This document shows positions 11,601-34,610 of a DNA stretch of 64,000 nucleotides, piece by piece. The position numbers and the translations under genes were made by a program. The stretch spans positions 5,375,556 to 5,439,555 of the forward strand of contig NC_051116.1 of assembly GCF_014839805.1 (NCBI RefSeq). Direction: 5' to 3'. Origin of the DNA: Manduca sexta. Its lineage: Eukaryota; Arthropoda; Insecta; Lepidoptera; Sphingidae. The notes under the pieces are model-generated. The model did not search any database. It saw only the letters and a list, made by a program, of their open reading frames with translations, and was not told where the DNA came from. Within the stretch, counting starts at the first letter, position 1, and each line of letters opens with the position of its first letter.

Positions 11601-14600
11601 TGCAATGGTGTGATTATGCTTAAGATAATAACTTTAAGCACGTATGTATCTTGGGTTTGATTCTTGAAAAGCGATGTTGGGTTTCTTGATTTAGTATTAG
11701 CCCGGCGTCTTGCATCGTATCCGTTATGGTGATAGGCCACCAATTAGTTCAAACCTAGCATATAGTGAAATTTGGGTATGATAGCATCTCTGCCTACCTC
11801 TGAAAAGGAAACGTGATATATGCTTTATGAATTAATCCTTCCTAGCCGAATTTCGGCCACGGCGGCCAATCTCAGCGTACATCAGGTACGCAGGAGATAT
11901 AGTGCACAAGCGTGTGCGCAATACACAAGCACTCCCTGTTCCTTAACTCTCATAGTCCGGTGAGACGGTAACTACATGAATGGAGAGATCAGGCGCAGGA
12001 CCAACGGCTTTACGTGCTTTAATGACCCGTTATACTCCACTTATATTATTCACAAAATGCGCAATTGATTTAATAGTAGGTGACACTTTATTGGCGATCA
12101 ATGAACGTTGTTATCAACTTATCAGTTGTAAATAACCGCTAAGCTATTATGAAAATAAGTATGTCGGTTTGGAGAGGTGTTGAGCCGATGGTAGTTGATC
12201 GGATGACAAGGTGTGGAGTAGTTTTTTTATAGAGTCCCGTTTAAGGCCCCCTCGTGAACAAACGTCCTTGATCATGTCTTTCATTCGTTTATGGCGGGAA
12301 TAAACAATTTAGGTTTTTTTAACAAATATGAAAATGTTTTATTTATTTATTTTTATTTATTTAGAGGAACAACTCACAAAACATACATCGATGCCTGAGT
12401 AATGCAAGGTTTTAGACAAAATCTTAATGTTGTTTCAATTACGAGTCGTCACGGCATGCACATAATACGAAATGAATTGGAAATGTTCCTTATTAAATTG
12501 TCTATCTAATAGTGTTGGTGGAAATTTAAAATTATGTGTACTTTAGGAAGACATGCACGAAATTAATAATTTTCGTGGCATTTTCATTATGAAATTATAG
12601 AAACATTATATACTTTAAAAAAGATATTGAAATGAACCCGAAGATTTGTTGGTTTGTTTAAACGCACCAATCTTAGGAACTACTTACCATCCTTTAAGGA
12701 ACAGAAATTCTATACTACGTTTAATGTATCTAATTATAAAGTTGAGTGCACACAGCGATACGGATTAAGCTGGGGTTACATGTCAAACAAATTACGGTTT
12801 TGTATTGACGTCGTCACACGTCAGTTGCTGTCAGTGAGGTATCAGTCACTTGATATTCAATGAAAGGGTGTTGTTATTTTGCGTTGATATTCATGATGAT
12901 AGAATGCTATAATTCCACCAAAGAGATATATGTTGCTAATTGACAAGCAATAGATGTCACACGCCTGTGATATTGGTAGTTGCCACCATTCCACCAGAGA
13001 GATAGCTAATTGCCAAGCTATAGATGTGACACGCCTGTGATATACTGTTTAAATTTTATTAGTAACCTTAACACAAAGTTGGTGAAAAAATATTATAATG
13101 GAACGAAAATGAATTATTCATGTCTCGAATAACATGTTACCACTAGACTTTCTCGCCCTCACACCCACCACTACAACTCCTGTAAGCCAGGATCAGCAGT
13201 GGCACGCATTATCCCGCAACGACATTAATCAAATAGAAAGATAGGGAGGAGTTGGAAATATGAATTGTTCACTTCCCTCCAAAGCGGGAGACAAAAATAT
13301 GAACTAAGGAGCCGTTTTAACCTCAAGGATAGTGACGTATACAACTAAGGTCAGTTATATATCACCACGGATAAAATTAAAAGAAAGGGTCCCATGACAT
13401 GAGATATTTCATTTTAGCACTAGAAAGAGGTGGTAGTAAAGCTTTTCCATTATTACTTTTTTTTCGTAGATATACGAAGCGGAATGTTCAAACGAACTCG
13501 TGTCATATCAGCTGGACAAAACAGAGGTGCAGCCTCAAGAAGGATGGTCCGAACAGGACCCATTGGAGATCATGCACAACATCAGAATATGCGCGGAAAA
13601 TGCTATAGATCAGCTGACTGAATTAGGTAAAAATATTTTTTTATTACTTTGCATGACGAGACGAGCTTGCCGGGCGTCTGAAAGTAAGTGTTACGACCGA
13701 TAAACAGTAGAAACACCAACACCTTGAATTACAATGTATTGTTTGGTATTCCACTGCGCTCGCCATCCTGAGACATGAGATGTTAAGTCTTATTATGTAG
13801 TTACATTGGCTCGCTTCGGTAATTAAACGAAAACGGGGTAATAGGTAATTAGGGGCAAAATGGAATCTTCGTATACAGATACCTGTAATGTACTCATTTT
13901 TCTTCTTAAGAATGTTGTGAATAGATTTGGATGAGGGTAAAGTTGATTTTTTAGATAAAAACTCAATGTTTCGGTCTATTTACTCCATAAGTCATATTCG
14001 CACTGTTTACGGGATATATTTAATTTGCTTAGGATGTAAAATTGTATATAGTTCCCGGTTACCCCAATATATTCTGGGGTATGTTTAATCTTATAGAGTA
14101 TAATATGTTTATCGCTATAGTTTGTCTGTTATTAACTATTCTACACTAAAACAAAATTAAACTATATACGTATTATAAAAACTTTACCGTGGCTATTTTT
14201 AACGTCATTGTAATTTGATTCATCGTTTGAAAATATACTTATGTGCTAACTTGAAGAAGGTAAAGTAAAACTTATATAAATAACTCTAAATTATGTAGCG
14301 AATGTCGTTAATTAACTAAAAAAATAAAGAGCTGTTATACTATTTGTCGTGTGCGAACAAGTAGTGCTTATTGGGGTAAAATATTACACAACTGAGATTG
14401 TTAAGGAGATTTTGAAAACACAAGAAATTTAGATCCTTCTTAGCAGAACAGTTTTTCCTCTTTGTTAATATAGCAATATAGACCTTACTGTAATTACCTT
14501 TCTTTAATATTACCGTTTACCCCATATATATTTTTCAGTAGATTTTATTACTGCTTATCCTCTTTCAGGTTATTCCAGAGAAGATATCGTCACATTAGGC

Positions 14601-17600
14601 ATAACTAACCAGAGGGAGACAACAATAGCATGGGACATGTGTACTGGACAACCCTTACATCCAGCTATAGGTGAGTTTATAAACTCATTCAGGTTTTTCT
14701 GTCCTAAAGCAACTCTTTGAATATGTAATCGCACACACTGTACTAAATATATATGGATATGTAAGCGCATACACACACTCACGACGTTTATCCCCGAAGG
14801 GGTAGGCAGAGGCGTAACTGATGCATCCAGTTTTCGACGTGTGTATTCCGTCTCATGATGTGATAGGGGGCGAGTCTATCGCCATATCTGGCACAAATAC
14901 CAGCCTCCGGGTTGATATTTAGTAAAAAAACAATATGACTATGCCCGACCCAGGAATCAAACCCGAGACCTGAGCAGTCGTACCGTAATACAACAACGCC
15001 ACCGATGCATAAAAATAGCTTGCAATTTCATTATTAAGTAGTTTCTACAATTTTTCGCTCAATCAAATGTGGTCTCAACCCGTCTACTTTAAAAGCCGGC
15101 TATTCTATAGTGACTTGCAAATCATATACCATTGGATAATCCCTGTCAAAGTTTCTATGAACTTATCATATCTGTATTCTCGATGGAGTTCTTTGATGTT
15201 TCCGATTAGAATTACAGATGGTATCTTATATAATATTGTATTAGAAGTGCGTGCTACAATTTGATACTTTTATTGATATAAGAATTGTCGTATATATTTT
15301 ATTTATTAAGGATTACCAACAGAGTTAACAATGTTACATACAAATAGCTAAAAAAAACATCGACTAATTGCAATTCTAATAACAGGCAAGCACAACATGC
15401 GCAAGGTTAAAAAAAATTAAACGTATATATTAAAGGAATGAAATATAATAGATAATACTATTATTTTAGTCAAAGTAAATAATCGATTACAAATTAATGA
15501 CATTTAATTTATTTAATTAAGTTTGAAATTTAGATTGCGTTCTATTTTTAGCACGAATTCATGAATAATAATATATGACCGGTCTATTTAAGCATAATAA
15601 ATAAAAACTAGTTTAAATTTTGTTCATTAGTTGCTGCCCTATGCCAAAAGAAATAAAATTAATTAAGAAAAAATAGTATTTGTATGAGATTACTAATGGT
15701 TTCGCTTTTCTTCTATCCTGAACTTTGCGGACAACCCTGTTCCATGTTATTACACTTGTTTTTGTTTCTATGCCGATTGTCATAGGCAATTGTCAAGCAA
15801 CTGAACTCATGCTGGGTAGATCGGTCCACCAACTGCTAAAAAACTATATTTATAAAATGTAGGTAGATATTGTAACTTTGACTTTGCGCATGAACAACAC
15901 CTCAGTCCCCCCCGTGACCATGAAGGCTGCAGTCTTCGAAACATCGGGAGAAAATTATAACTGCGATAAAATCCGTAAAATAGTTTTATTTTAATGATAA
16001 ATGAAAATGATAAATAAATCATCAATGGCCGCCTTGGTGGCGTAGTTGTACTGCACGCGCTCTGAGGTCCTGGGTTCGAATCCCTGGTCTGGCAAAGTGA
16101 TATTTGGGTTTTTCCGCTTAGTCTTAGGCTCGCCCCCTATCACACCATGGAATGGAACATACTTGGCGAAAAGTTGGTGCCCTGGTTGCGCCTCTGCATA
16201 CCCCTTCGATGAAATGCCTGATATTGTGTGTAATATCGTTACCATTTTTATATTCCAGCATGGAATGATATCCGAACAGACAGCACAGTCGACGCTATTC
16301 TAGCCAAAGTGCCAGATCGTAACAAGAATTACTTTAAAAACATATGCGGTTTGCCAATATCGCCATACTTTAGCGCGTTGAAAATGCGCTGGTTGAAGGA
16401 CAATGTTAAAGCGGTGAGGAAGGCGAGCAGAGATAAACGGCTTTTATTCGGCACCGTTGACTCTTGGATTATTTGGGTAAGTGCAAATTGTACTCTATAA
16501 ATACTAATGTAAGGGTGTTTTTTAAATTTATTTGGGCAACAAAAGAGATTACAATCAGTATTTTTTTCTTTTTATTTATAAAAGAAACAATAGAACAATA
16601 TTATTCATATAAACTACATAAAATAGGAACACACAATCCAGTAAAATTTGGATATACATTTAACATATGGAGGGGGAGTCTTGTAAACCATTACGATGCG
16701 TTATAGAGGCTCGTACAAAGCGTTATGTAACATTGTTTCTTTTAATTTTAAAACAATAACAAAGGTATTTTAGCGACTTTCCAGTATTTTGCGTAAAATA
16801 ATTGTGAATATTAGAAAAAATTGTAAATATAGAATTACATAACTTTTGTAGTGTTGAGGGTGTATTGGAAAACGTTACGGCGCGTTACATGGAGGGGTGG
16901 GCGGGTCAAAAATCTTCAAGGAATGCGTTGCGTATACTTGACGGCCCCTAAGGTTAATAGAAAGTTGACTGTAAAACATTGTTTTATTTTTAAGAATACA
17001 TTCAGAGGCGTAGCTACAGCTATATCAGCCGTATCAGTGATACGGGGCCCCTGAGCTTTGGAGTCCCTCTTGACCCATACCTACATTAAACTAAGCAGGC
17101 GCCCAAAAATTCACACTGCCCTAAAGAGACCCCCAAATTTTTTGATATATGGCCCCTCTGTCCATATACGCTACTGGATACATTTTTTGTGCAATTATAT
17201 TTATAGTTTAGGTAACAATATTGTATGTAATTGAATCTTCCTCGTAGGATTAATGCCTCATTGGAATATTTGGCCTTCCAAATTTTTTCAGAATAATTTA
17301 ATTAATTCATACAAAGAAAAATGAACTGTAACAATACCTAATAAGTGTCCTAATGCCTCTTCAGAACTTAACCGGAGGTCCTCACGGTGGCATCCACATA
17401 ACAGATGTAACCAACGCGTCCAGGACTCTGCTCATGAACTTGGAGACTTTGAACTGGGACCCTATGCTTTGCAGGTGAATTATTATAATTGTGATATATT
17501 TCTGATGGTAGGTTTAATATGTGAGAGTCCGCCTGGGTAGGTACCACTGAAATGACTATTTCTGCCGCTAAGCAGTATGTGGCCAGGGTTGTGTTCCGGT

Positions 17601-20600
17601 TTCAAGGAAATTGTAGCCAATCTAACTACTAGTCATAATGAGACTTAACATCTCATGTCTCAGGATTCGAGCGCAGTGGAATACCAAACAATACTTTGTA
17701 ATTCAAGGAGTTGGATGGTGTTCCTACTGTTTATGGACGGTCGCACCACCTACCGTCAGGCAAACGGCAAGTTCGTCTCATTAAAAGCAATAAAAAAAAT
17801 TGTGATCTTTGCATTATTGTTAAGTAATCATTTATATGAGGTTAAAATGCCTCCTTAGATCATTATTCTGTCTCCCGCTTTGCTATGGAGGGAAGTGGAC
17901 AATTGATATTTCCAACTACTCCCTATCTTTCTATTTAATTAATTTAATTGCGGGAAAGTCTATAATCATTTATACACAAACAGTTGAATAGATTTGGCGG
18001 GAATTTGTCATGAAAATAGACCATGCTGTGTATTAATACATGAAATCATTTTCTTGGAAATTGGTCGCCACAGTGGAATTTATTCTAGAAATATTTCACG
18101 CAAATATAGGCGAGCAAAGTCAGTACAGACATGAAACAAACGTAATTGTTTTTATGACCTTGCCTTATTTATTGCAGGTTATTCGGCGTACATCGAAACA
18201 CTTTGCCGCAGATCCGTAGCAGCTCTGAAGTTTACGGTAGAGTTGAAGATTGTTCAGTTTTGGACGGCATCAGAATATCTGGGGTGAGTTACAAACAAAT
18301 TGATATTAGTCTTTTATGAAAGATTATAAGTGTAATTTGGTTTTAAGGTATTTTCAATTGATATCTACGATAGAAAATATTTTAGAAAACAGTATTACAA
18401 TTCCTATTTAAATGTGTACGTTATCGGTCCCCGGGCTCACGATAAATTAGGAATAATTATAATTGATAATATACTTCCCAAATACCCCATTCGCAACTTC
18501 ATCAACCATGTAACTAACTATCCTTTGTTTTCAAAATTAAATTTTATATATTAACCTTACTAACATTCCTAGGTATAGTATTTTTTTTTTGGGTATCGTG
18601 CCTTCCATTTGTAACCGGGGAAAACCTGCGAAGGGGATACTGGAATCTCCCAGTTTAGCGACTGCTCGGCTGTGGCAGGAAACTTGGGAGGGGATAGCTG
18701 GGAAGGAAGTATGGGTGAAGGATACAAAGAACTCTTAGGATGGGAGGAGGGAAAGAGGCTAGTAAATGTTCGCGCGCCCTTATAGGCCTCAATGTGAATT
18801 GGCAACCATGAGGCATACACACTGGACTGTGTGCCTAGGGCCGCGACAAATGTCCGTGCATGGGCGTGCATTCGGTATGAAGACCGGGCACACAAGAATT
18901 GCCTTTTGGGAGATGTACAGATTGCTTTTAAAAATTTCGTAAAGCTATGCTTAGTTAAAACACAAATTGACTCGATCAGCTGTAAGTCAAAACCATCTTG
19001 CCTCTTAATAAGGTTTAAACTAGGAACCCCGTGATGTTTTTGACAGCTGTTTAAGCAATTCTTAACCACCTAACGCTAAAGCAAGTTTATAACTAAGACT
19101 GAAAGTATTTAAAATAACATTACAGTGAAAACCGGTTATAGCGACTTCGAAGGGACCACCGAATGTGGACGTTATATCCGATAGTCGTTATAAACAATAC
19201 GCTTTTTATATGCATATATTTAAAGAGACTTTACTATTTAGTCGTTATAACCGGTGCGTCGCTATAACCGGAGTCGTTATAACCGGTTTCTACTGTATAT
19301 CCTTTACAGATACTAGGCAACCAGCAATCGGCGTTGGTAGGCCAGAACTGCATGAGCGCAGGACAAGCCAAGAACACGTACAGGAGCGGATGTTTCCTCC
19401 TCTACAATACAGGCACGCGTAAGGTGCAGTCCACACACGGGTTGATAACCACGGTCGCGTACAAGCTGGGACCCGACGCGCCCGCTGTGTACGCGCTTGA
19501 AGGTCAGTGTGGACGTTACTTTTAAATTAGATGAATCAATTTAGATATTTCATGGTTTCAATGATAATTTCAGCATTATTTTTGAGACTGCCTCGGTGGC
19601 GTAGTTGTATTGCATGCCCGGTACAATAGCGCTCTGAGGTCCTGGGTTTGAATCCCGGGTCGGGCAAAGTGATATTTGGGTTTTTCTGCTCGGTATCAGC
19701 CCGGAGTCTGGAATTTGTGCCCGATATGGCGATAGGCTCGTCCCCTATCACATCATGGGACGGAACATACTTGGCGAAAAGTGGGTGCCCTGGTTGCGCC
19801 TCTGCATACCCCGTCGGGGATAAATGCGTGATGTTATGTATGTATGTATTTTATTATTTTAAGTGATTACATATAATCGCCTTTGTTAACATATTGCGGC
19901 CAATTTAACAGAAAACAAAGATTCAGACAAACGTAAATAAATCTAAATGGGAAGCTGGCAAGAATCGGGTTGTATGCACGCTTTGCCACTGGTCTACCCC
20001 ATTTGTTCCCATAATATTATTACTATTTATAAAACAAACAAACACACATCACGCATTTATTCTCGAAGGGGTATGCAGAGGCCCAATCAGGGCACCCACT
20101 TTTAGCCAAATGTATTCATTCCCATAATGTGATAGGGGACGAATCTATCGCCTTGTCGGGCACAACACTCCGGGCTGATATTGAGCAGAAAAACCCAAAT
20201 ATCACTTTGCCCGACATGGGATTGCCACCCAGGACCTCAGAGCGAAGTCGTATAGCGCAGTACAACTACGCCTCCGAAGCAGTCTTATTATTATTGTTTA
20301 CCCCAATCGTAATTACGTATTACCGAATACCCCATTCGCTGTCGAAAAAACATCCAGGAAGTCGCTGGATGCAGGCCGCTTCCAACAGGTCGACGTGGAG
20401 ATCCTTGGGGGAGGCCTATGTTCAGCAGTGGACTTCCTGTGGCTGAGATGATGATGATGATGATGATGAATACCCCATTTTACCCCAGGCTCGATTGCCG
20501 TCGCCGGTGGTGCCATGAAGTTCCTGCGGGATAACTTGCATCTTATCAAGGATGTGGTTGAAGATACGGAGCATATTGCTGGACAAGTGTTCTCAACGGG

Positions 20601-23600
20601 GGACGTGTATTTTGTTCCAGCTTTTAGTGGACTATATGCGCCTTATTGGAGGAAGGATGCTAGAGGGTGAGGATAACTGAATTCTGATTATAACTAGCTT
20701 ATTATAAAAGCTTACTATAGCTTGTTATGAAAAATTCGCAAAGATATATTTAAGTAAAACACTAATTTACTCGATCAGCTGTTAAAAGCCCGCCATGTTA
20801 CCTCTAAATAAGGTTTAAACTAGAATCCGGTGATGTTTATGACAGCTATTTAAGTAATTCTTAACCACCTTTTAACGTTAAAACAAGATTATAAGTAAAA
20901 CTGATCAATCAATCAATTAACATTTTTGTAGTTATTTTATTATACCTTTTCACCCCAACATAAAAATAATGTTGACATATTGGTATTTCAGAATAAAACT
21001 ATTTTTCGGATTTTATATAACTTTCTCGCGAAGTTTCGAAAACTTTGCAGCCTTTATGGTTCGGGCGGACTGAGGTGTTTGTCATCCGATATGTCAATAT
21101 TGCAACATCTACCTACATTTTACAATTATACAACAATAGTTTTATATCGATGTCTAACATTCGCGTAAACATAAGAAATTATTACTTGAAACTTATTTTC
21201 ATTTGACTAATTTTATTAGAAGGAGAAATACATAATGTATGTTCATAATAGTTGCAAATTATTTAATTATTCAATTTGCTTGCAGAATAATTTGCGGTCT
21301 CACAGCTTTCACGACCAAGAACCACATCATACGAGCAGCTTTGGAGGCAGTCTGTTTCCAAACCAGGTAATATAAACAATAACATTTAATTAATATGGAA
21401 ATATCATATTGATATAATTATTGTATACTAGATTTTACTCGCGGCTTCGTCCGAGTGAAGGAGTTTTCCGGGATAAAAGTCACGGTATATATTTTCCTTG
21501 GGTAGAAAGTAGCTTAACTTTCCAGTGTCATAAACTATCTCCATAGCAAATTTAATAAAAATCCGTTGAGTAGATTTTGAGAAAATCGATGACATACAGA
21601 CAGACAGACAACTTTTGGGGAACTTTGTTTTATAATATGTATAGATAAGTATGATATAAATAAATTTTGTTGTAAACACTATTTCAAATTGAATGAGATT
21701 AAATCTGCCATTTTCATTCATTTAATTCGCAACAGAATATTTATAAAGAAATTTAAAATATTGTTCCCTTCAAATGTCCCTGTATCGATAACTGTATTTT
21801 TTTATTCAAAGGGACATATTGGAAGCAATGAACAAAGACTGCGGCATGCCATTGGCCAAACTACACGTCGACGGTCGGATGACGTCCAACGATTTGCTGA
21901 TGCAGTTGCAAGCGGACCTCACCGGTATACCTGTGTGTGAGTATTTTTTTATTTTAACATGACATAGATTGTTAGCCTGGAAATGCCGGCTTATACAAAC
22001 ACACCGGACTTTTTGATGAGCACTTTAGATGCTGGCAACCCTTGAAATTAAGCGACTTGAGGGGAACCCATTAACAGGTTACGAATCTAGGCTCATGACG
22101 GTCACTGGGAGAGGATGACACATCAGCTATTAAGGATGAGCGTGCTAAACAATCTATCCACTAAATTCGTTGGGACGCGGGCCAGGACTACTAGAAGGGT
22201 AGGGGGGACGGGGAACTCTGCGAGGTCGGAATTGCGGTCTTGTGGATTGTATAAGTATCATAATGGTGGTTGTAATGTGACGGAGTTTGACGTCAATGTT
22301 GTAGCTGTGCTATGGAATTAATTTATGATTATATCGGAACGGTATAAGACGTTAAATGTTGTGGACGTGTATATACGTCATGCACGTTTATATGCGTTTT
22401 TGTAGAATTATTTCACCGTCCTTCAAATAAATTTATCACATCGTTTATGTATCACTACATAGTATAAAACAAAGTCGCTTTCTCTGTCCCTATGTCCCTT
22501 TGTATGCTTAAATCTTTAAAACTACGCAACGGATTTTGATGCGTTTTTTTTAATAGATAGAGTGATTCAAGAGGAAGGTTTATATGTATAATAACATCCA
22601 TTAAATAGTGGAGAAATACTGTTATTTTGTTATGTTATACCCGTGCGAAGCTAGTGCGGGCCGCTGTGTTTTTATATACAACGTTCACAGTTTTTCTGTA
22701 GTGTATTTAATATCAGCATTGCACCCGTGCGAAGCCGGGGCGGGTCGCTAGTCGTATTATATGTAAATTATGAGTTATTTTTTAATTTTATTTTTTTATT
22801 TTATTCTCAGTGCGAGCCCAGTCGTGGGATATGTCTGCGCTAGGAGTGGGGATAGTGGCGGGCAACTCCGTCGGCGTGTGGAGCTGTGACAAGTGGAAAC
22901 ATCACTCTGCATCCACTGACACATTCTTACCTACCACTACTGATGACGGTAGGTTGTACCACTATACTAATGTGCCATAATTTAATAAAAGACTTAGTTA
23001 CTGCCCACAAATTATATGATAGTTCATAAAGCAATTGGCTTGTCATTAAAGTAATTGATTGTAAAAATGTTGATGTCGATAAAATTTTATCAGCAGTCAA
23101 TAGCCTGATTACACGCTCAATTAGCCGGATTAAGTTCTAAATGTTTTAACGATACGACATTTGATAGGTACCACTTTATTATTTGATGTAATATCATATT
23201 TTAATCTATTCCATTTTAGATCGTGACGCGAGGTACACGAAATGGAAAATGGCGGTGCAACGGTCACTCGGATGGGCGACGACCAAAAAGTCGATCACAA
23301 TGACAGGTCAGGCAAAAAGAAAATATAGCATGGTGCCACAAAAGAGTTACGAGTCCATATCACCCACGGACAGTCGAAAAAATTCGTACGATTTCAACGG
23401 AAAATTAGAAATAGAGGTCGACACCTCGACATTAGACGAGGGCGTCAATTCTTATAACGAGGACTTGCTTCAGTATTCCGCTCGGAAATTCTCAATTTAC
23501 GTCCCGCTAAAGACTAAAAAAGTCGAACACACTATATTAGATGATGTCGAATATTTTATGGCTAAAAAGGAGTGCGATTATGGAATGTGCGAGTGTTGTG

Positions 23601-26600
23601 ACGATGAGAAAAAGATATCGACAAACTGGGAGTCGATAGAGGAGATTATCGAGAACGATCCGGAGATAATTTTCGATAGTGACGATAATCCTATATTGGT
23701 TGAACCGGTGAGGACTCCTGACGCTTTGCTCATAGATTCCGGGCCCGTAGTGATGGGAAACGGTATCAGTTTGAGCAAACGTATGCATTTGGAAAAGATA
23801 CCGGCGATATTTCGCACTATTTGCAGTAAATTCTCGAATGCTTCACTGACGTGATTAGACGTCATGTCAGTAATTGGTTTCCTGTGCTTTGTCCGCTTTG
23901 GTATAAGCGGATCCAAGTGTTAAATTGTGACGTTTGCTTATTAGCTGGCTAGATCAAGGCTGTTCTAAATTATTCAAGAATATTTAAATGTTTTCATTTA
24001 CATTGAATTTAGTTCAAAAATATACTATTATATACATAAAAGTTCGTAACAAAAGATTTCGTGATACGTTATAATCTAAAGCGAATTATAAAAGAATGTT
24101 TTACAGTTTAAAATTATTTGAGCGCCAGTACTTAAATAATTTATTTATTTACTTAAAAGACAACATATATACAATTTATTTCGAATAAACATTCATGATT
24201 AAGACGTCACCAAAATAATTCATAAATTAACTCGAAATAAGTCGACGTATGAAGTTAAGAAACTTATATTAAAATATTATATTCAATAAACCAGTGAAAT
24301 ACTGAAGTAAAGTCCTCTATGAAGTATTTTCCAAACTATTCTATATTTTTGCTCAATTAAATCTGCAAATTATTTAATAATACTTGCAGTGTCCGACCAA
24401 AACTCGGTGGAACATTTAGACCGAGGGTGGCCTCTGTTTCTGGCCAATATCGTCACTCAAATTCAAATTACTCATTACAAATATTGTCGGCAATTTTAAT
24501 TTTACTAATATGTCAAATTAAAAAGATGTCACATATAGATTTCAAAATCTTTTATTAAAAACACAATGGCAACGTGGTTTTCGTCTTATTAAAAAAAAAT
24601 TGTCGAAACACGAATTTTCGCGCTCATTGGCCGAAACCGTAATTCGGTCGGACACTGCAGAAATATGCAAAAGTCGAATTATTTAATTGTTAGGATTTTT
24701 ATAGTAATATTGCTGTATTATTTTGCCCACTAAAGTGTTTTTATTATTTGATAATTGTTTTCAGTTTTGTTGCTTTTCTTTAAATTTGTAGTATTTCTTT
24801 CTCTTTACAAAGTTTTAGAATAGTTTCCAGGGATCGGCCACATGTCACGCGTTCCTATAAATAAAATAATAGTAATGGTATTAATGAACTATGAGGCTGG
24901 CGATAATTAACTTGATATTGATCTCTTTGAGAGATGTAATTCATATCTGTGATATTTTTATTTTATGTTAGGTCGCTATGTTTGTTTACATGTAGCAAAG
25001 AAATTTCTATAATAATCCATTGATGGAAAATCACGTTATACATTTCGTGACAAGTATTTGTTGTTTCTGTTTTTGGTATTTTATAGTAAGGTTAGAGAGC
25101 CTTATTCCGTCTACGGGGGTATATCCGTCTTTTTGCAACTACGGGCGTTCTAAACGAAGGACAACTTTGATAGCCGAATAGGTAAATAGGGGTTTTGTTT
25201 ACTCTCTTACCTATACTTCCAAGTCCTCCCTATCTTTCTGTTTGATTAATTTCGTTGCGGGATAACGACAAATTGGTTTTCCTTGAGTCTATTGAAACAC
25301 CGACGTGGTTGGCATAGACAAAACTTTATTTTTATATAGACAATAGACAAGCAAATCAATCTGTGTACGCACGACTAGATGACGTCACTTACATATTTTG
25401 ATACAAAGAACTTCACTGCTCGGTGTCATAAAATGCGTGCCACTGCTGATCCTGGCTTACAGGAGTTGTAGTGGTGGGTGTGAAGGTGGGAAATTCTCTC
25501 TTACATATACGGATATCGATGCTGTCCTTGGGATAGAACGCCTGTAATTGAAAAGATTCGACCCTATAGACGGAATAAGGCCTCTTTACCTTAATTTTTT
25601 TTTTTTTGTTGACATATGTGGCCGTACCCTCCTCAATCTCTGAATATTTCTATTATTCTCTAGATAGGAATTATTATAATGTAATTATTTACTAACACTA
25701 ATATAAGACTGGTATTAATATTGATGAATAAAATTATTATTTTATCCTTCAGTGGGTCTATAGTTTTATTTTTTCCTTGCATGTACTTTTGCATGGATTT
25801 GATAAGCATGCATAGAAATGATTGTTTTCATTTTTAATTGGATTTCGATGTGCACAAGAGGTATTCGATTAAATATAAAATAAGAAAAAGCCAGTATAAG
25901 AATAATAAATTTGTCATTTTATTTATTTAATAATTTTGTTTTAAGTCACTATAATTCAGTATTAAATGGAAATTAATTGTATAAGATAGATTAAATGAGC
26001 GTGCCTTTCTGTTTACCTCTTGGTACAAATTCATAATTAAATTCTTTAACTTCATACAAACGTGCAATACTTGTGTTTAATAAGATCATTTTCACGATAT
26101 TACATTACGGCGCGTAAATCATGTAAAATTCGTGGCATTACATTGCACAGTCACTTGACGTATATAAACGTCAATAAAGTTTTTTGTTTATTGTTGGTGC
26201 CTGATATACACATGCTGATCGCGTAACGCGACCCTATTGCAGGTTTTAACACCTTGTGTACGGTGGTCGTTATGGGGCGGATATAAAATACATCCTACCA
26301 CCAGCAAAAAGTGCAAATGATGACGGATATAAACGTCAGTATAGTATGAAAGCGAAAAATATAAATCGTATTTTGATTTATTAGTGTTAGCTCAAAAAAA
26401 ATTTAAGTCGCCAATCCACAGTACCTATGCATTCAGCATCTTGCAATCATATGGAATGCGACAGTTCATTTATCCCGCCAATAAACGCACATTTCACGGT
26501 TTCACGACCGATTTTCACTAGAATTTAAATTATCATAGATTCATGAGTGCGTGGACTAAAAATTAAAACCATGTTATTTGATTTGCGCAAGATTTTATTC

Positions 26601-27385
26601 TTAATATGATTTTGGGACAGGATCAGTGTATACAAACATATCTACGTTTTTATGGAATCGCAAACACAGGCACGTATTTAGTCACACCTCGGGACCATGG
26701 CCCCCCAAGAAAATATATTAATAAATACTCATACGCATAAGGGTGGAAATATTTGAATTGGAATAAATAAATAAAAAGTTCACACTTGTGTTGTTTGTTT
26801 GATTTTCCTAGACACGTGCGTCATCACTTAACAGATTACAGTGAATATAAAAAATATACGAACATTAAAGCAGTATTAACAATTAAAAGCACACTATATA
26901 TTGCTTAGTAATACAGATCTATAAACTTACCTAAAGCGATAGCTAACTTTATAACTCTAAATATATAGTATCTTAATAAAAGCCTAGTGACTCAATGTCA
27001 TATTTATAAGTATTGCACGTTTTCTTATCAAAATTATAACTACATAATGAGAACACTACTGACTATTGGAAATATTAATAAGCTCTGTCGAAGTCGACTA
27101 AAAGCCATTTTAATTTACCTTAACTTAGTCATGGAATAATAAATATACTAATATTATAGTATAAATCATACATTTTATTGGCTACGGCATATTGGAACTT
27201 AATAAAATTGAAAGATAAGTTGCAATTATCGTTTTTATACTTCATGATGAGTGGCATAAGTTTTATAATACCTTTTCTTTTCAGAGGAGCGATACAAGCT
27301 TTTGGCATCGATACCCGCTGCTTTGTACATCTTTGGCAGCTTTACCATGCTAGTCGTATCATCTATACTCAAGAACAATAGATGA
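8695..27385 (+). CDS. Gk: Glycerol-kinase-like gene, 13 exons, membrane-tail isoform (556 aa)
   Basis: Joining 8703-8777, 13470-13626, 14569-14670, 16259-16476, 17365-17474, 18178-18283, 19310-19502, 20489-20666, 21286-21366, 21812-21936, 22811-22948, 23220-23306 and 27285-27385 keeps one open frame of 556 codons with GT-AG at every junction. The order and spacing of motifs match FGGY-family glycerol kinases, which phosphorylate glycerol to glycerol-3-phosphate with ATP: an N-terminal DDGT loop (res 16-19), NQRET (91-95), a TD motif (197-198), KNTY..GCF (277-285), and the long block [15 protein letters not shown]. Several ligand residues differ from the family: N260 where the catalytic Asp is expected, R281 and R411-equivalent for Gly, and K331 for Gln. 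Catalytic activity is therefore doubtful. An acceptor-like CTCCAG ends at 8694, so a 5' UTR exon may lie upstream. The last exon adds a hydrophobic tail, as in the membrane-anchored vertebrate GK isoform. Confidence 0.9.
8703..8777 (+). CDS. Gk: Gk-like exon 1 (start codon, DDGT loop)
   Basis: This exon holds 25 codons from ATG 8703 to donor GTATGT at 8778, ending in phase 0. It encodes a short Lys-rich leader followed by [14 protein letters not shown], the counterpart of the family's nucleotide-binding D-Q-G-T loop. The conserved Gln is Asp, and the Thr/Ser after the GT pair is Lys. The Arg of the loop is kept (R23). An acceptor-like CAG just 8 nt before the ATG suggests the ATG sits at the start of the second transcribed exon, which supports this start. 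It is only 75 nt long and easily missed. The frame joins exactly to exon 2. Confidence 0.88.
8796..8971 (-). mobile_element. GGCCTTATTCT-type MITE, copy 1
   Basis: It has inverted termini GGCCCTTATTCTGTATGATA and (reverse complement of right end) GGGGCCTTATTCTCTATC. Two more copies lie at 61760 and 63196. It begins 18 nt after the exon 1 donor of the Gk-like gene. Confidence 0.82.
9040..9262 (+). repeat. Repeat I, copy 1 (Gk-like intron 1)
   Basis: ATTCTCCCGCTTTGCTATGG, GAGACTCGTCGAGCTTCACT, GCTTACAGGAGTTGCAGTGG. Confidence 0.78.
9452..9750 (+). repeat. Repeat B1, copy 2 (Gk-like intron 1)
   Basis: Shares TATGAATTTGCAGCGCGCAT and CCAAGGGAAATAGGGATTAA with copy 1; about 90% alike. Confidence 0.82.
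9811..10010. repeat. Repeat F fold-back copy
   Basis: The terminus ACTGGTGGTAGGTCTCTCAT is present at 9811-9843 and again inverted at 9977-10009. Between them is a reversed partial copy of the repeat. Confidence 0.75.
10035..10215 (-). mobile_element. SINE family 2, headless 3' part with box B
   Basis: Covers CACATCACGCCTTTCTCCTC to CCCGACCCGGGATTCGAAC, then switches directly into a family 1 SINE. Confidence 0.75.
10216..10345 (+). mobile_element. SINE family 1, 3' part
   Basis: The body AGTCTATCAATCCGCACTAG to ACAGGGCTGATATT, directly joined to a family 2 SINE at 10213. Confidence 0.75.
10690..10955 (-). repeat. Repeat D2 in Gk-like intron 1
   Basis: ATACTACTGAACGGATTTGG, ACACATGGGATACAACTT and CGGGCGAAGCCGCTAGCAAA. 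It is a relative of family D with a different interior. Confidence 0.7.
11228..11337 (+). mobile_element. RTE LINE 3' fragment
   Basis: It reads [20 protein letters not shown] and then QWTITGR, the same C-terminus as the 20337 copy, followed by a GATGATAATGATGATGATGA tail. It lies in Gk-like intron 1. Confidence 0.85.
11340..11500 (-). repeat. Repeat I (intron 1)
   Basis: CACCACTACAACTCCTGTAA, AAGCTCGGCGAGTCTCAGGG in reverse. Confidence 0.75.
11829..12025 (-). repeat. SINE family 3 body
   Basis: TTTCGGCCACGGCGGCCAAT, AGTCCGGTGAGACGG and GATCAGGCGCAGGACCAACG follow the 4500-4785 body in reverse. Head absent. Confidence 0.72.
12030..13140. other. Gk-like intron 1, unassigned part
   Basis: AT-rich DNA. 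Near 12900-13050 a block around GAGATATATGTTGCTAATTG is present twice in tandem (second as GAGATAGCTAATTGCCAAGC), each followed by ACACGCCTGTGATAT. Confidence 0.5.
13144..13325 (-). repeat. Repeat I (intron 1)
   Basis: CACCACTACAACTCCTGTAA, ATAGGGAGGAGTTGGAAATA; an internal part is deleted relative to copy 1. Confidence 0.75.
13470..13626 (+). CDS. Gk: Gk-like exon 2
   Basis: The acceptor TTTTCGTAG precedes 13470 and the donor GTAAAA starts at 13627. It has 52 codons plus 1 nt (residues 26-77). The peptide contains [11 protein letters not shown], matching the family's EGWVEQDP segment that follows the N-terminal beta strands. The exon joins exon 1 in phase 0 and exon 3 in phase 1. Confidence 0.95.
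13640..13835 (-). repeat. Repeat F, partial (intron 2)
   Basis: TTGCATGACGAGACGAGCTT, GGTATTCCACTGCGCTCGCC and TTAAGTCTTATTATGTAGTT are the reverse of the family 3' half. It begins about 15 nt after the exon 2 donor. Confidence 0.75.
14569..14670 (+). CDS. Gk: Gk-like exon 3 (NQRET motif)
   Basis: It starts after CTCTTTCAG and ends before GTGAGT. The peptide includes [14 protein letters not shown] (residues 87-100). R93 and E94 correspond to the Arg-Glu pair that binds glycerol in E. coli GlpK and are conserved here. Phase is 1 on both sides. Confidence 0.96.
14767..15003 (-). mobile_element. SINE family 2 in Gk-like intron 3
   Basis: Full-length on the - strand, from ACACTCACGACGTTTATCCC to ATACAACAACGCCACCGATG. 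Confidence 0.8.
15845..16000 (+). repeat. Repeat P (Gk-like intron 3)
   Basis: CGTGACCATGAAGGCTGCAG, TTCGAAACATCGGGAGAAAA, GCGATAAAATCCGTAAAATA. Also at 48578-48722 (+) and reversed at 21025-21175. Confidence 0.72.
16029..16235 (+). mobile_element. SINE family 2 in Gk-like intron 3, next to exon 4
   Basis: Head CTTGGTGGCGTAGTTGTACT and box B GGGTTCGAATCCC are intact. The 3' end lies about 25 nt from the exon 4 acceptor. Confidence 0.82.
16259..16476 (+). CDS. Gk: Gk-like exon 4 (glycerol-site Tyr)
   Basis: It starts after TATATTCCAG and ends at TGG before GTAAGT. It encodes [15 protein letters not shown] through GTVDSWIIW (residues 112-184), a near-canonical FGGY-kinase segment. Y148 in PYFSALK matches the glycerol-contacting Tyr. 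A tRNA-headed SINE (16029-16235) ends about 25 nt before the acceptor. Confidence 0.96.
16862..16955 (+). repeat. Repeat M (Gk-like intron 4)
   Basis: CGGCGCGTTACATGGAGGGG, GGAATGCGTTGCGTA, TTGACGGCCCC. Confidence 0.65.
17006..17178 (+). repeat. Repeat O (Gk-like intron 4)
   Basis: GGCGTAGCTACAGCTATATC, TGATACGGGGCCCCTGAG, AAGCAGGCGCCCAAAAATTC; an inverted copy lies at 29845-29975. Confidence 0.7.
17365..17474 (+). CDS. Gk: Gk-like exon 5 (TD-TNASRT motif)
   Basis: The acceptor CTCTTCAG precedes 17365 and the donor GTGAAT follows 17474. It encodes [18 protein letters not shown] (residues 192 onward), the FGGY signature in which Thr-Asp and Asn-Ala-Ser-Arg-Thr are kept. It ends in phase 2 and joins exon 6. 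Confidence 0.95.
17498..17800 (+). repeat. Repeat F in Gk-like intron 5
   Basis: TATGTGAGAGTCCGCCTGGG, GCAGTATGTGGCCAGGG, GAGCGCAGTGGAATACCAAA, CAGGCAAACGGCAAGTTCGT. Eight copies lie in the window; this one is full-length. Confidence 0.8.
17858..17960 (+). repeat. Repeat I, 5' fragment (intron 5)
   Basis: TTCTGTCTCCCGCTTTGCTA, ACTCCCTATCTTTCTATTTA. Confidence 0.68.
18178..18283 (+). CDS. Gk: Gk-like exon 6
   Basis: It starts after TTTATTGCAG and ends before GTGAGT. Its peptide runs from [19 protein letters not shown] to LDGIRISG (residues 221-256). This links the two actin-like domains; the family equivalent is LP.I.SSSE...G. It ends in phase 0 immediately before the exon carrying the altered active site. 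Confidence 0.93.
18585..18905 (+). repeat. Repeat E, copy 1 (Gk-like intron 6)
   Basis: TCTTAGGATGGGAGGAGGGA, CCTCAATGTGAATTGGCAAC and GGGCGTGCATTCGGTATGAA recur at 42640-42945 and, reversed, at 46375-46640. The open - strand frame through it is an artefact of the repeat. Confidence 0.72.
18920..19108 (+). repeat. Repeat L, copy 1 (Gk-like intron 6)
   Basis: TCGTAAAGCTATGCTTAGTT, CTCGATCAGCTGTAAGTC and TTCTTAACCACC are shared with 20730-20912 and, reversed, with 50885-51070. Confidence 0.8.
19123..19295 (+). mobile_element. pogo/Tigger-like MITE (173 bp)
   Basis: It is flanked by TA (19121-19122 and 19296-19297). Termini are CAGTGAAAACCGGTTATAGC and, as reverse complement of the other end, CAGTAGAAACCGGTTATAAC. 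Inner repeats of CGTTATAACCGG occur near the right end. It ends 14 nt before Gk-like exon 7. Confidence 0.85.
19310..19502 (+). CDS. Gk: Gk-like exon 7 (altered active site)
   Basis: It encodes [19 protein letters not shown] onward (residues 257-321). Glycerol kinases have G-D-Q at this position, where the Asp is the catalytic base; here the codons are GGC AAC CAG, giving Asn260. Further on, KNTYRSGCF has Arg281 and Ser282 where the family has Gly-Thr, which contact nucleotide phosphates. Phe285 is kept. The exon is well formed, with donor GTCAGT and phase 0 to 1. A 173-bp TIR element ends only 14 nt before it, so the element supplies most of the acceptor region. Confidence 0.95.
19588..19850 (+). 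mobile_element. SINE family 2 in Gk-like intron 7
   Basis: Best-preserved family copy: GCCTCGGTGGCGTAGTTGTA, box B GGTTTGAATCCCGGGTCGGG, body CCCGATATGGCGATAGGCTC, tail (TATG)n. Confidence 0.85.
20038..20277 (-). mobile_element. SINE family 2 in Gk-like intron 7
   Basis: Opposite orientation to the 19588 copy, 190 bp away, so the two can form a long inverted repeat in the pre-mRNA. Confidence 0.82.
20337..20467 (+). mobile_element. 5'-truncated RTE LINE fragment with (ATG)n tail and 12-bp TSD
   Basis: It encodes the last residues of an RTE polyprotein ([16 protein letters not shown]) followed by (GATGAT)n. The duplication GAATACCCCATT is present at 20325-20336 and 20468-20479. The insertion sits in a Gk-like intron and the right-hand TSD copy is part of the exon 8 acceptor. 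Confidence 0.9.
20489..20666 (+). CDS. Gk: Gk-like exon 8
   Basis: It encodes [17 protein letters not shown] and then [21 protein letters not shown] (residues 321-380), the most conserved part of the C-terminal ATPase domain. K331 occupies the position of the family's Gln in the AVQWLRD segment. The acceptor TTTTACCCCAG lies directly after an inserted LINE fragment and uses the duplicated target-site copy. Donor is GTGAGG. Confidence 0.95.
20730..20912 (+). repeat. Repeat L, copy 2 (Gk-like intron 8)
   Basis: TTACTCGATCAGCTGTTAAA, GGTTTAAACTAGAATCCGG and GTAATTCTTAACCACC match copy 1. Confidence 0.78.
21025..21175 (-). repeat. Repeat P (Gk-like intron 8)
   Basis: GAAAACTTTGCAGCCTTTAT, CATCTACCTACATTTTACAA. 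Confidence 0.62.
21286..21366 (+). CDS. Gk: Gk-like exon 9
   Basis: It is an 81-nt exon flanked by GCTTGCAG and GTAATA. It encodes [19 protein letters not shown] and then EAVCFQTR (residues 381-407), the helix following the YAPYW block in all glycerol kinases. Phases are 2 on both sides. Confidence 0.95.
21428..21652 (+). repeat. Repeat D in Gk-like intron 9
   Basis: TACTCGCGGCTTCGTCCGAG, AAATTTAATAAAAATCCGTT, CATACAGACAGACAGAC. Confidence 0.75.
21812..21936 (+). CDS. Gk: Gk-like exon 10 (VDGR motif)
   Basis: It starts after TTCAAAG and ends before GTGAGT. It encodes [20 protein letters not shown], then [20 protein letters not shown] (residues 408-448). The family's VDGG is VDGR (codons GAC GGT CGG); the second Gly normally contacts the adenine nucleotide. 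The Asn three residues further on is kept (TSN). Confidence 0.95.
22470..22756 (+). repeat. Repeat D3, copy 1 (Gk-like intron 10)
   Basis: AAAACAAAGTCGCTTTCTCT, AACGGATTTTGATGCG, TTGCACCCGTGCGAAGCCGG. The inverted second copy is at 43520-43805. Confidence 0.78.
22811..22948 (+). CDS. Gk: Gk-like exon 11
   Basis: It starts after TATTCTCAG and ends before GTAGGT. It encodes [20 protein letters not shown] and [11 protein letters not shown] (residues 450-494). The family reads E-T-T-A-L-G-A-A at the centre; here the Glu-Thr pair is replaced by Asp-Met. The following GVGVW-like segment is kept. Confidence 0.94.
23220..23854 (+). CDS. Gk: Gk-like exon 12, read-through terminal form (705-aa isoform)
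   Basis: The acceptor CATTTTAG precedes 23220. The frame continues [20 protein letters not shown], typical of the kinase C-terminal helix, and stays open to TGA at 23852-23854. An internal donor at 23307 (ACAG|GTCAGG, with an unfavourable C at +3) would shorten it and join exon 13. If not spliced, 182 residues are added after residue 523. This tail is rich in Asp, Glu and Ser, has a Cys cluster in [15 protein letters not shown], and no clear membrane segment. The 547-nt open stretch and codon use argue it is coding. AATAAA signals lie at 24184 and 24285. I recognise no domain in the tail. Confidence 0.75.
24184..24290 (+). terminator. Two AATAAA poly(A) signals for the long Gk-like isoform
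   Basis: AATAAA occurs at 24184-24189 and 24285-24290, 330-430 nt after the stop of the long form and well before exon 13. They fit a proximal polyadenylation site competing with splicing to exon 13. This is positional inference; AATAAA is common in AT-rich DNA. Confidence 0.45.
24386..24658 (+). mobile_element. GCAGTGTCCGACC MITE
   Basis: Perfect 13-bp inverted ends GCAGTGTCCGACC enclose about 273 bp. The next bases also pair imperfectly (AACTCGGT against TTACGGTT). It lies just past the long isoform's poly(A) signals, inside intron 12. A hAT-like origin is possible but no duplication was verified. Confidence 0.75.
25087..25590 (+). mobile_element. Long-TIR element containing nested repeats
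   Basis: The outer ends read TAAGGTTAGAGAGCCTTATT and, as reverse complement, TAAGGTAAAGAGGCCTTATT, and keep pairing for roughly 80 bp (GGCGTTCTA.., GGACA..). The centre (about 25205-25500) is a copy of the CCTGGCTTACAGGAGTTG repeat, which is itself interrupted by about 115 bp at 25284-25400. Confidence 0.75.
26205..26315 (-). repeat. Repeat G fragment in Gk-like intron 12
   Basis: TTTTAACACCTTGTGTACGG and CGGATATAAAATACATCCTA match the 5' part in reverse. Confidence 0.68.
27285..27385 (+). CDS. Gk: Gk-like exon 13, alternative last exon with membrane tail
   Basis: The acceptor CTTTTCAG ends at 27284. Joined to the donor at 23307, the split codon becomes Glu, and the frame reads [20 protein letters not shown], then a hydrophobic run [13 protein letters not shown] and a stop. 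One helix of about 20 residues followed by a short basic end is a tail anchor. Vertebrate GK has a similar hydrophobic C-terminal exon that targets it to the mitochondrial outer membrane; the same role here is inference. AATAAA lies 8 nt after the stop (27393). Confidence 0.82.
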
Positions 27386-31238: not shown

Positions 31239-32544
31239 CCTAGTCTTGCCATAAATATTGTAATAAAGAAAAAAGAAAATTGTTAACTGCAAATAACATT
31301 TATTACTTTTACAGTGTGTCAGTTTAATACATAAATATAAAACAATTAAAAATATAAAAAGCTTATTCGAAGTGGTCTCCATTGGCTGCAATACAGTCCT
31401 TTAAACGATGAGGCCAGTTATCAATAGAAGCACGCACTCTTTCCATGGGAAAATTCTTCACTGCCAATCGTATAGATTGTTTTAGGGACTCCAAATTATC
31501 ATGGCGTTTAGAGCAAGCTGTACTCTCTAAAACTGACCACAAATCATAATCCAGCGGATTAAGATCGGGACTAGACGACGGCCAGTCTTCAGCTCTGATG
31601 AAGTCCGAAACGTTCGATTCCAACCAAGACTGCGTGGACCGAGCTTTATGACCCGGCGCCGAGTCTTGCTGGAAGGACCATACTTGGTTATTGAACATGG
31701 TGATGTTAAGGGGCTTAACTACCTTCTCAAGAATGGTATCTTGATACACTTGTGCCGATGTTTTGATACCTTTTTCACAAAAATATGGCTCAGTCACTCC
31801 TTCATAGCTAACACCCCACCAAACCATCACTGAAGTCGGATAATGTCCACGTTGCACTCTGTCGACTAATTGGGAAGCTTCCTTAGAGCTTTGAGCATAA
31901 ATACGGTCATTTTGTTTGTTAAAATGTTGCTCAATTGTAAAAATTTTCTCATCCGTAAACAAAATTTTTCTGTGACCTCCCTTTGCGTACCGCTTCAGTA
32001 GTTGTTTCGATTTTACCACCCTATTCTTCTTTAAATTATCAGTTAAGAAATGGCCAGTGCGTCTCTTATAGGCTGCAAGTCCTAAGTCATCTTTTAAAAT
32101 ACGCGACATGGTTCTAGGTGCTATCTTCATTTCCCGAGATAAAATCTTTTGCTTTCGGACAGGATTTCTTCGAATTCTTTCCCTTACTGCTTTGACCACC
32201 TTTTTCGTACGAACACTACGTGGACGGCCAGATCTTTTCTGTCACAAACAGAGGAGGTCTCATTGTACCTATTAATAGCCCGGTACACAAACATTTTACT
32301 AATACCAAGTGTATGGAGAGTTTTAAAAATTGCATTTGGCTCCATACCTACTTTGTGTAATGCTATCACAGCGATTCGGTTCTCTTTATCACCCCACACC
32401 ATTTTAATATCGCAAAATATTTTACAATGTATTGGCGCCAAAATGAGAAAACACAATGAACAATCGTATAAAAATGACAGATTCGAAATTCAAATGTAAT
32501 ATTTTTTTATAATTAAGTGTAACAGTATTTATGGCCAGACTAAG
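31239..32544 (-). mobile_element. Full-length mariner-like element, maT (DD37D) type
   Basis: The 1306-bp element is bounded by TA on both sides (31237-31238 and 32545-32546). Its terminal inverted repeats match over about 26 bp: CCTAGTCTTGCCATAAATA on the left and CTTAGTCTGGCCATAAATA as the reverse complement of the right. It carries a single transposase gene on the - strand. Size, TA duplication and catalytic spacing fit the maT group of the Tc1/mariner superfamily. Confidence 0.9.
31363..32402 (-). pseudogene. DD37D transposase with one frameshift
   Basis: Translation begins at ATG 32402 and runs through a paired-like N-terminal helix-turn-helix (NRIAVIALHKVG...). A frameshift near 32240, at an AAAA run after CDRK, splits it; the remaining 278 codons read from 32199 to the stop at 31363. 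In that second part the catalytic residues are D83 (ILFTDEKIF), D179 (FQQDSAPGH) and D217 (NPLDYDLW), with 37 residues between the last two. All three are present, so the protein would be catalytically complete apart from the 1-nt loss. The frameshift could be decay or an assembly error. Confidence 0.88.
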
Positions 32545-34483: not shown

Positions 34484-34576
34484 AATGGTGTGAGAATTAA
34501 GCTTGAACACCCAGAAAAGTGTCTCACAGTCACAAAGCCTCGATTTACATATTCCAGTAAGTTTTACAGCATGTAA
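34484..34576 (+). promoter_or_regulatory. Two minimal upstream ORFs before the F-box gene
   Basis: ATG-GTG-TGA at 34484 and ATG-TAA at 34571 lie 127 and 40 nt before the F-box start. If transcribed in the leader they could reduce initiation at 34611. Transcription of this leader is not shown, and an intron could remove either one. Confidence 0.3.
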
Positions 34577-34610
34577 TATCAAGAAAGGTGAGAAAATATT
34601 TCCTAACAAG

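What the first reader, a model, noticed from the sequence alone, without database searches (positions are those of the whole stretch)
19310..21936. Glycerol-kinase-like protein with a stripped active site
The scaffold is strongly conserved, yet four ligand positions are changed. The G-D-Q Asp (catalytic base) is Asn260. The Gly-Thr of KNTYGTGCF is Arg281-Ser282. The Gln of VQWLRD is Lys331. The second Gly of VDGG is Arg. The N-terminal loop is also altered (DDGTK). Arg93, Glu94, Tyr148 and Phe285, which shape the glycerol pocket, are kept. Clean splice sites and an intact frame argue against a pseudogene. This points to a pseudokinase or a kinase with another substrate or function.
Basis: partly seen in the sequence, partly recalled or inferred. 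Interest (0 to 1): 0.8.

Follow-up and report, generated by a model that had tools for sequence, protein, structure and literature searches.

The report
Insect glycerol kinase without its catalysts
A tobacco hornworm gene labelled glycerol kinase, with counterparts in many other insects, keeps the glycerol pocket but has lost residues needed to use ATP, so it is probably a long-conserved non-enzyme with another job.

Summary
The catalytic Asp is Asn260 and the phosphate-loop Gly is Arg281. All 120 listed homologues, whose named members span six holometabolous orders, carry both. A second, profile search reached past the group: 31 of 120 Asn+Arg, 88 Asp+Gly, one unscorable; no Asn+Gly or Asp+Arg. 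With trait columns removed, 29 Asn+Arg rows form one clade (100/100). Protein rates are close to those of Asp+Gly paralogues, lower in Hymenoptera; 15 named species carry both types. Glycerol-site residues are kept, while four ATP-side positions became mostly basic. Lys331 is not diagnostic. Best reading: an old pseudo-glycerol-kinase, perhaps a tail-anchored glycerol or glycerol-3-phosphate-binding scaffold or regulator, comparable to but separate from mammalian GK2/Gykl1. Loss of catalysis is inferred, not assayed. A fall armyworm RNAi study appears to have silenced this gene as an ordinary kinase.

The parts
8703..8777 (+). coding exon 1 (aa 1-25), starts with ATG; altered phosphate hairpin IDDGTKTVR at aa 15-23
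   Evidence: GT donor, frame; a 3' splice-like AG lies just upstream of the ATG, so a 5' untranslated exon is likely (not tested)
13470..13626 (+). coding exon 2 (aa 26-78)
14569..14670 (+). coding exon 3 (aa 78-112) with NQRETT: Arg93, Glu94 of the glycerol pocket
16259..16476 (+). coding exon 4 (aa 112-184): Trp113, Tyr148 of the glycerol pocket
17365..17474 (+). coding exon 5 (aa 185-221)
18178..18283 (+). coding exon 6 (aa 221-256)
19310..19502 (+). coding exon 7 (aa 257-321): Asn260 (Asp in active kinases), Arg281-Ser282 (Gly-Thr in active kinases), Phe285 kept
20489..20666 (+). coding exon 8 (aa 321-380): Gly327 kept, Lys331
21286..21366 (+). coding exon 9 (aa 380-407)
21812..21936 (+). 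coding exon 10 (aa 407-449): VDGR, Arg429 in place of Gly; Asn433 kept
22811..22948 (+). coding exon 11 (aa 449-495): Asp455 where Asp+Gly kinases have Glu
23220..23306 (+). coding exon 12, short form, donor ACAG|GTCAGG, spliced to the tail exon
   Evidence: the same junction (MT|EERY versus MT|G) separates isoforms with identical 400-residue stretches in H. zea, P. napi, Hyposmocoma and Aphomia (4 of 6 pairs examined)
23220..23854 (+). coding exon 12, long form, reads through to a stop: 182-aa tail with TILDD, KKECDYG.C.CC and IENDPEIIFD motifs (705-aa isoform)
   Evidence: (P0001 identical); mostly low predicted confidence
27285..27385 (+). coding exon 13: hydrophobic C-terminal tail (LASIPAALYIFGSFTMLVVSSILKNNR), 556-aa isoform
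   Evidence: hydropathy 1.9 over 19 residues; modelled as helix 529-559 in the H. zea orthologue P0042

Best explanation
The gene encodes a pseudo-glycerol-kinase: a paralogue that kept the glycerol kinase fold and glycerol pocket but can no longer catalyse phosphoryl transfer from ATP. Shown here: Asn for the catalytic Asp, Arg for the phosphate-loop Gly, loss of the VDGG second Gly, one clade with members in six holometabolous orders, slow protein evolution, Asp+Gly paralogues in the same species, and a C-terminal hydrophobic tail that Lepidoptera can swap for a long conserved tail by alternative splicing. Inferred: it does not phosphorylate glycerol; the basic residues at 20, 281, 331 and 429 make the former ATP-phosphate site an anion site; the protein binds glycerol or glycerol-3-phosphate and works as a membrane-anchored (probably mitochondrial outer membrane) scaffold or regulator of glycerol metabolism, in the manner of mammalian GK2/Gykl1. 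I put loss of glycerol kinase catalysis at about 0.85 and the ligand-responsive tail-anchored scaffold at about 0.35.
Against: No activity or binding was measured. Asn at an acid-base position can leave slow catalysis. Gln261, Thr19, Gly327 and Asn433 remain, so nucleotide binding is not excluded. Gly281 is not absolute among the others: one Asp+Ser protein (P0314) exists, and some Asp+Gly Hymenoptera have VDGA. An enrichment of ligand positions among changed columns (4 of 11 against 10 of 154, p=0.008) counts the two positions that define the groups; without them it is 2 of 9 against 10 of 154, p=0.13, so it is no independent support. The tail is ancestral (90 of 96 Asp+Gly relatives of 535-590 aa have one), so it is no evidence for a new role. 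RNAi of the probable fall armyworm orthologue lowered glycerol after chilling in one assay and lowered cold survival, which its authors read as enzyme activity (PMC8904778).
Confidence: 0.5

Rival explanations
1. Still a glycerol kinase, only slower or regulated: Asn260 and Arg281 lower the rate but the protein makes (or, as some cold-hardiness papers hold, removes) glycerol-3-phosphate in vivo.
For: Glycerol pocket, Gln261, Gly327, Asn433 and fold kept. In S. frugiperda dsRNA against Sf-GK1 lowered glycerol after chilling in one assay (29-35 against about 73 for the three genes) and raised cold mortality (PMC8904778, section 8 read; discussion passages).
Against: In the same paper's HPLC table silencing Sf-GK1 left 40.4 mM glycerol against 44.1 in control (a significant but small drop), while silencing Sf-GK2, with Asp, left 6.1. 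Species with this gene also keep Asp+Gly paralogues.
Confidence: 0.13
2. An active kinase for another substrate, or another ATP-dependent chemistry such as adenylylation.
For: Some pseudokinases turned out to use ATP in other ways (general knowledge). Conserved new residues suggest that the cleft does something.
Against: The substrate side did not change (R, E, W, F 120 of 120), and the Asp lost is the base that FGGY sugar kinases share (recalled). Arg in the phosphate loop would be expected to fill the ATP phosphate site (inference).
Confidence: 0.08
3. A regulatory subunit: it forms mixed oligomers with an active paralogue (C27 or C924 type) and sets that enzyme's activity, like other dead paralogues of metabolic enzymes.
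For: Fold conserved; Asp+Gly paralogues coexist in 15 named species. Glycerol kinases are oligomers (recalled). A dead paralogue activating its partner is documented for trypanosome deoxyhypusine synthase (PMC3663545, start of abstract seen in the listing).
Against: No interface analysis was done and no interaction data were found or sought.
Confidence: 0.22
4. A decaying gene or annotation artefact.
For: Loss of catalytic residues is a usual early sign of decay.
Against: 12 to 13 clean exons, 86% identity to Bombyx over 548 aligned residues, rates close to or below those of Asp+Gly paralogues, and unnamed assembled contigs no longer than 2.4-3.6 kb that carry full 688-710-aa frames (P0003, P0007, P0008, P0019), which suggests spliced RNA, as the Manduca gene spans 15-19 kb.
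Confidence: 0.02

Closest known systems
Glycerol kinase (EC 2.7.1.30), FGGY family, as in E. coli GlpK and the Manduca C27 and C924 paralogues
   Different: Catalytic Asp, phosphate-loop Gly and VDGG Gly replaced by Asn, Arg and mostly Lys/Arg; Glu of the ...E.TALG motif is Asp in all 29 clade rows of the tree set.
Mammalian sperm GK2 and Gykl1
   Same: Glycerol-kinase-like proteins reported without detectable kinase activity, held at the mitochondrial outer membrane by the C-terminus, acting as adapters with Pld6 (PMC5566117, passages read); a glycerol-kinase-like protein on arrays of outer-membrane anion channels is PDB 7nie (title seen; that it is from sperm is recalled).
   Different: Separate origin: 7nie keeps Asp and Gly and falls outside the insect group. 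The mouse genes are intronless and testis-specific; this one has introns, and its probable S. frugiperda orthologue was expressed in all stages and tissues tested (PMC8904778).
Sf-GK1 of Spodoptera frugiperda (PMC8904778)
   Same: The paper lists Arg99, Glu100, Phe155 and Asn266 as glycerol-binding residues; the Asn+Arg proteins of Helicoverpa (P0004, P0006, P0042) and Chrysodeixis (P0010) have exactly these numbers, so Sf-GK1 is very probably this gene.
   Different: The authors treat it as a catalytic glycerol kinase; in the passages and sections I read they do not remark on the Asn. They give an open frame of only 343 aa, and I did not see the Sf-GK1 sequence.
Inactive-looking glycerol-kinase-related genes of Drosophila
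   Same: PMC3302884 states that five related genes exist and only two are predicted to be active (passages).
   Different: Whether any of the other three belongs to this clade could not be tested; no Drosophila name was among the 360 listed hits. The paper behind the statement (PMC2807631) is not held.

Membership tests
Catalytic glycerol kinase | FGGY fold and both FGGY domains | tested here: met
Catalytic glycerol kinase | Glycerol pocket Arg, Glu, Trp, Tyr, Phe (GlpK 84, 85, 104, 136, 271; roles recalled) | tested here: met
   120/120 for R, E, W, F and 117/120 for Y
Catalytic glycerol kinase | Catalytic Asp (GlpK 246 with Met; role recalled) | tested here: not met
   Asn in 120 of 120 and in 31 of 120 hits of the second search
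Catalytic glycerol kinase | Phosphate-loop Gly-Thr (GlpK 267-268) and VDGG second Gly (412) | tested here: not met
   Arg281 120 of 120; Gly429 0 of 120. Some Asp+Gly proteins also lack the second Gly (VDGA)
Catalytic glycerol kinase | ATP-dependent phosphorylation of glycerol | not testable with these tools
   needs an enzyme assay
Tail-anchored pseudo-glycerol-kinase of the mammalian GK2/Gykl1 type | C-terminal hydrophobic tail | tested here: met
   556-aa isoform, helix in the model of P0042; 51 of 55 clade proteins of 535-590 aa
Tail-anchored pseudo-glycerol-kinase of the mammalian GK2/Gykl1 type | Mitochondrial outer membrane location and Pld6 or VDAC partnership | not testable with these tools
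   reported for the mammalian proteins
Tail-anchored pseudo-glycerol-kinase of the mammalian GK2/Gykl1 type | Common descent with the mammalian protein to the exclusion of active kinases | tested here: not met
   7nie groups with a herring sequence outside the insect rows
Pseudogene | Broken frame or relaxed constraint | tested here: not met
   open frame and splice sites; protein rates close to or below paralogues; dN/dS itself not tested

The most novel reading that the evidence does not exclude
The ATP half of a glycerol kinase was rebuilt, at or before the origin of insects with complete metamorphosis, into a basic anion pocket next to an intact glycerol pocket: Asn260 removes the negative charge beside the phosphate, and Arg281 (with Lys/Arg at 20, 331, 429) takes over the place of the ATP phosphates. 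The product is a dedicated glycerol-3-phosphate (or glycerol plus phosphate) sensor on a membrane tail, with a second tail made by alternative splicing in Lepidoptera, that reports glycerol status to metabolism, for example in chilling and diapause.
Probability: 0.2. Interest if true: 0.82.

Novelty: new variant of a known kind. Interest (0 to 1): 0.62.

Why it matters
Public records name these proteins glycerol kinase or glycerol kinase 3 in dozens of insects (names), and one RNAi study of cold hardiness appears to have targeted the gene as an enzyme. If it is not an enzyme, that annotation and part of the account of glycerol build-up in insects need revision. It would also be a metabolic pseudokinase shared by six insect orders, with Asp+Gly paralogues in the same species, so enzyme and pseudoenzyme can be compared directly in laboratory insects such as Bombyx, Apis or Manduca.

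Tried and rejected
dN/dS: not computed, because no insect coding DNA besides this genome is held; protein rates were compared instead, for matched but not always identical species (beetles: Aquatica-Popillia against Aquatica-Oryctes; ants: Odontomachus against Ooceraea). The clade is slightly faster than its paralogues in Lepidoptera and beetles and slower in Hymenoptera. Origin on the holometabolan stem: the free tree puts the clade beside an Asp+Gly lineage that also has cockroach and katydid members (94/90), which would make the split older; holding the clade with the holometabolan members of that lineage is not rejected (p-AU 0.0999), so the date is open. One unnamed sequence (P0111) is the first branch of the clade, but in the fragment tree it falls inside, beside the non-Hymenoptera; its source is unknown. 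Whether hemimetabolous insects or Drosophila have the gene is untested: one search used an Asp+Gly query and could only favour Asp+Gly hits, and protein searches are capped at three. One search lists the best 120 hits of an Asn+Arg query, so 120 of 120 is partly selection; the profile was also built from clade members, but reached beyond them. Lys331 as evidence was rejected. The enrichment test does not hold once the two group-defining positions are left out (p=0.13). A list of columns invariant in both groups has eight false entries caused by gaps in the 7nie row; only 260, 281 and 455 stand. An added alignment misplaced some columns, so only positions 260 and 281 are used from it; one search is the clean alignment. 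Literature: the ten searches listed, by title and start of abstract, no paper that calls this insect clade a pseudokinase; most subscription papers (for example those on glycerol kinases of B. mori, S. exigua and P. xylostella, seen only as citations) are not held. The row label human7nie is wrong: 7nie is a mammalian glycerol-kinase-like protein. Distances within the predicted cleft could not be measured, as no coordinate file was in the script folders. PMC11545850 (beetle glycerol kinases, passages) and PMC12869072 (Drosophila enzymes, passages) gave nothing on these residues; PMC7536082 held only a citation.
Full report
What is there. The window lies in a 470-Mb insect genome, and its gene product is identical to a protein named glycerol kinase isoform X2 of Manduca sexta (705 aa). 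The gene has twelve coding exons from 8703 to 23854, or thirteen to 27385 with the alternative end; junctions are canonical and the frame is open. Of six pairs of lepidopteran proteins compared, four (Helicoverpa zea, Pieris napi, Hyposmocoma, Aphomia) show the same alternative junction behind identical 400-residue stretches; the Chilo pair has another second tail, and the Plutella pair is not of that kind.

The active site. Roles of these residues are recalled from the GlpK literature. Lys331 is not special: Asp+Gly rows have K or R there in 23 of 48 scorable cases.

How widespread. All 120 listed homologues (of 7998 scored) have Asn260 and Arg281 (same by motif). Named members are Lepidoptera, a lacewing, beetles, a flea, Hymenoptera and nematoceran flies; others are unnamed. 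Because the listing is cut at 120, I searched with a 255-column profile of seven members, which limits hits to shorter proteins and so reaches past the clade: of 120 hits 31 have Asn+Arg, 88 Asp+Gly, and one (P0208) lacks the Asp/Asn motif in its gene model but has the Arg; one of the 31 (P0220) departs from the family just after the Arg. No protein with Asn+Gly or Asp+Arg was seen. The named vertebrate, mollusc, crinoid and fungal hits among them have Asp+Gly. A third search, seeded with an Asp+Gly fragment whose best match is a cockroach, gave 119 Asp+Gly and one Asp+Ser (P0314) of 120, from cockroaches, crickets, bugs, lice, mayflies, crustaceans, Hymenoptera, beetles, a herring and unnamed sources; by design it could not be expected to show Asn+Arg proteins. 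Fifteen named species appear with both types (Manduca, Danaus plexippus, Plutella, Apis cerana, Cephus, Odontomachus brunneus, Polistes exclamans, Xylocopa violacea, Neodiprion virginianus, Diachasmimorpha, Fopius, Anthophora retusa, Aquatica, Lamprigera, Rhamnusium, typed). In Manduca the paralogues on contig C27 and on a small contig with two near-identical copies keep GDQQ and GTG.

Descent. A careful tree of 79 rows with ten trait columns removed recovers 29 Asn+Arg rows as one clade at 100/100, with an internal order close to the species tree: an unnamed row first, then Hymenoptera, then beetles with lacewing beside flea, flies and Lepidoptera. Its sister is an eight-row Asp+Gly lineage with Manduca C27, Danaus, Plutella, a honeybee, a weevil, Periplaneta, Anabrus and an unnamed row (94/90). 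A stem-holometabolan origin is not rejected. Holometabola are more than 300 million years old (recalled).

Constraint. Distances between the same or matched species are 0.19-0.21 in the clade against 0.46-0.48 in the Asp+Gly Hymenoptera lineage, 0.41 against 0.38 in beetles, and 0.24 and 0.28 against 0.21 and 0.26 from Manduca to Danaus and Plutella. So the clade is about as constrained as its Asp+Gly relatives, more so in Hymenoptera. In the fragment tree 152 of 153 rows of the clade keep both Asn and Arg (the other is P0208; trait columns were left in) over 13.3 changes per site. A site that had merely lost its job would be expected to drift; these stayed Asn and Arg, which argues that they do something. 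Of 165 columns near-invariant in Asp+Gly kinases, 11 changed in the clade, four of them at ligand positions (p=0.008; ligand list recalled), but two of the four define the groups, and without them the excess is not significant (p=0.13). In 108 of 120 clade proteins at least three of the four cleft positions 20, 281, 331 and 429 are basic, 90 having all four.

Function. Two published strands bear on it. First, mammalian Gykl1 and Gk2 are reported to lack glycerol kinase activity, to sit on the mitochondrial outer membrane by their C-termini and to act as adapters with Pld6 (PMC5566117, passages), so a tail-anchored pseudo-glycerol-kinase has a separately evolved precedent. Second, in Spodoptera frugiperda two genes called Sf-GK1 and Sf-GK2 were silenced; the paper lists Asn266 among glycerol-binding residues of Sf-GK1 and Asp258 for Sf-GK2 (section 6), and the Asn+Arg proteins of Helicoverpa and Chrysodeixis carry exactly the Sf-GK1 numbers. 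By HPLC, glycerol after chilling was 44.1 mM in controls, 40.4 with Sf-GK1 silenced and 6.1 with Sf-GK2 silenced; a second assay gave similar drops for all three genes (section 8), and the authors report higher cold mortality for all. The HPLC contrast suits a non-enzyme that has some influence on glycerol or cold survival, but the two assays disagree.

Verdict. Loss of catalysis is the best inference; a role as glycerol or glycerol-3-phosphate-responsive scaffold or regulator is the most likely mechanism but rests on residue chemistry and analogy. It is a new variant of a known kind, pseudoenzymes of the glycerol kinase family, and I found no paper naming it as such in the ten searches made, which cover open-licence papers only.

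Noticed in passing
L040-L042 (genome contigs C924, C1406, C1844): A fast-evolving glycerol kinase with Asp and Gly kept (end branch 1.03) occurs on three small contigs; L040 is 98.7-99.5% identical to the other two over most of its length, probably uncollapsed haplotypes.
   Followed up: partly
window 23307-23854: Lepidopteran long C-terminal tail: conserved among 39 aligned tails with TILDD, KKECDYG.C.CC and IENDPEIIFD motifs, no Pfam match. The cysteine cluster could bind metal or be lipidated (guess).
   Followed up: partly
window 19615-19834 and 20046-20259: Two inverted copies of an interspersed repeat, 211 bases between them, inside the intron between exons 7 and 8 (85-87% complementary); could form a long hairpin in the pre-mRNA. 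Related copies lie near 10077, 14787 and 16058.
   Followed up: no
window 34494-35813: Open frame of 440 aa with an F-box domain downstream of the gene.
   Followed up: no
window 54365-56767, 37803-39635, 31366-32241: Two frames with reverse transcriptase domains and one DDE_3 transposase-like frame below Pfam's cut-off.
   Followed up: no
Asp+Gly Hymenoptera kinases such as P0266, P0283, P0308: These otherwise active-looking paralogues have VDGA instead of VDGG, so the second Gly is not absolute.
   Followed up: no
P0314 (Prorops nasuta): Keeps the Asp but has Ser where the phosphate-loop Gly stands (STYSTGCF), the one Asp+Ser protein seen.
   Followed up: no
position 455 of the window protein: Glu of the ...E.TALG motif is Asp in all 29 clade rows and Glu in all 46 scorable Asp+Gly rows; role unknown to me.
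   Followed up: no
P0111: Unnamed 557-aa sequence that branches first in the Asn+Arg clade (95/84 for the rest); its host could show whether the gene predates Holometabola.
   Followed up: no
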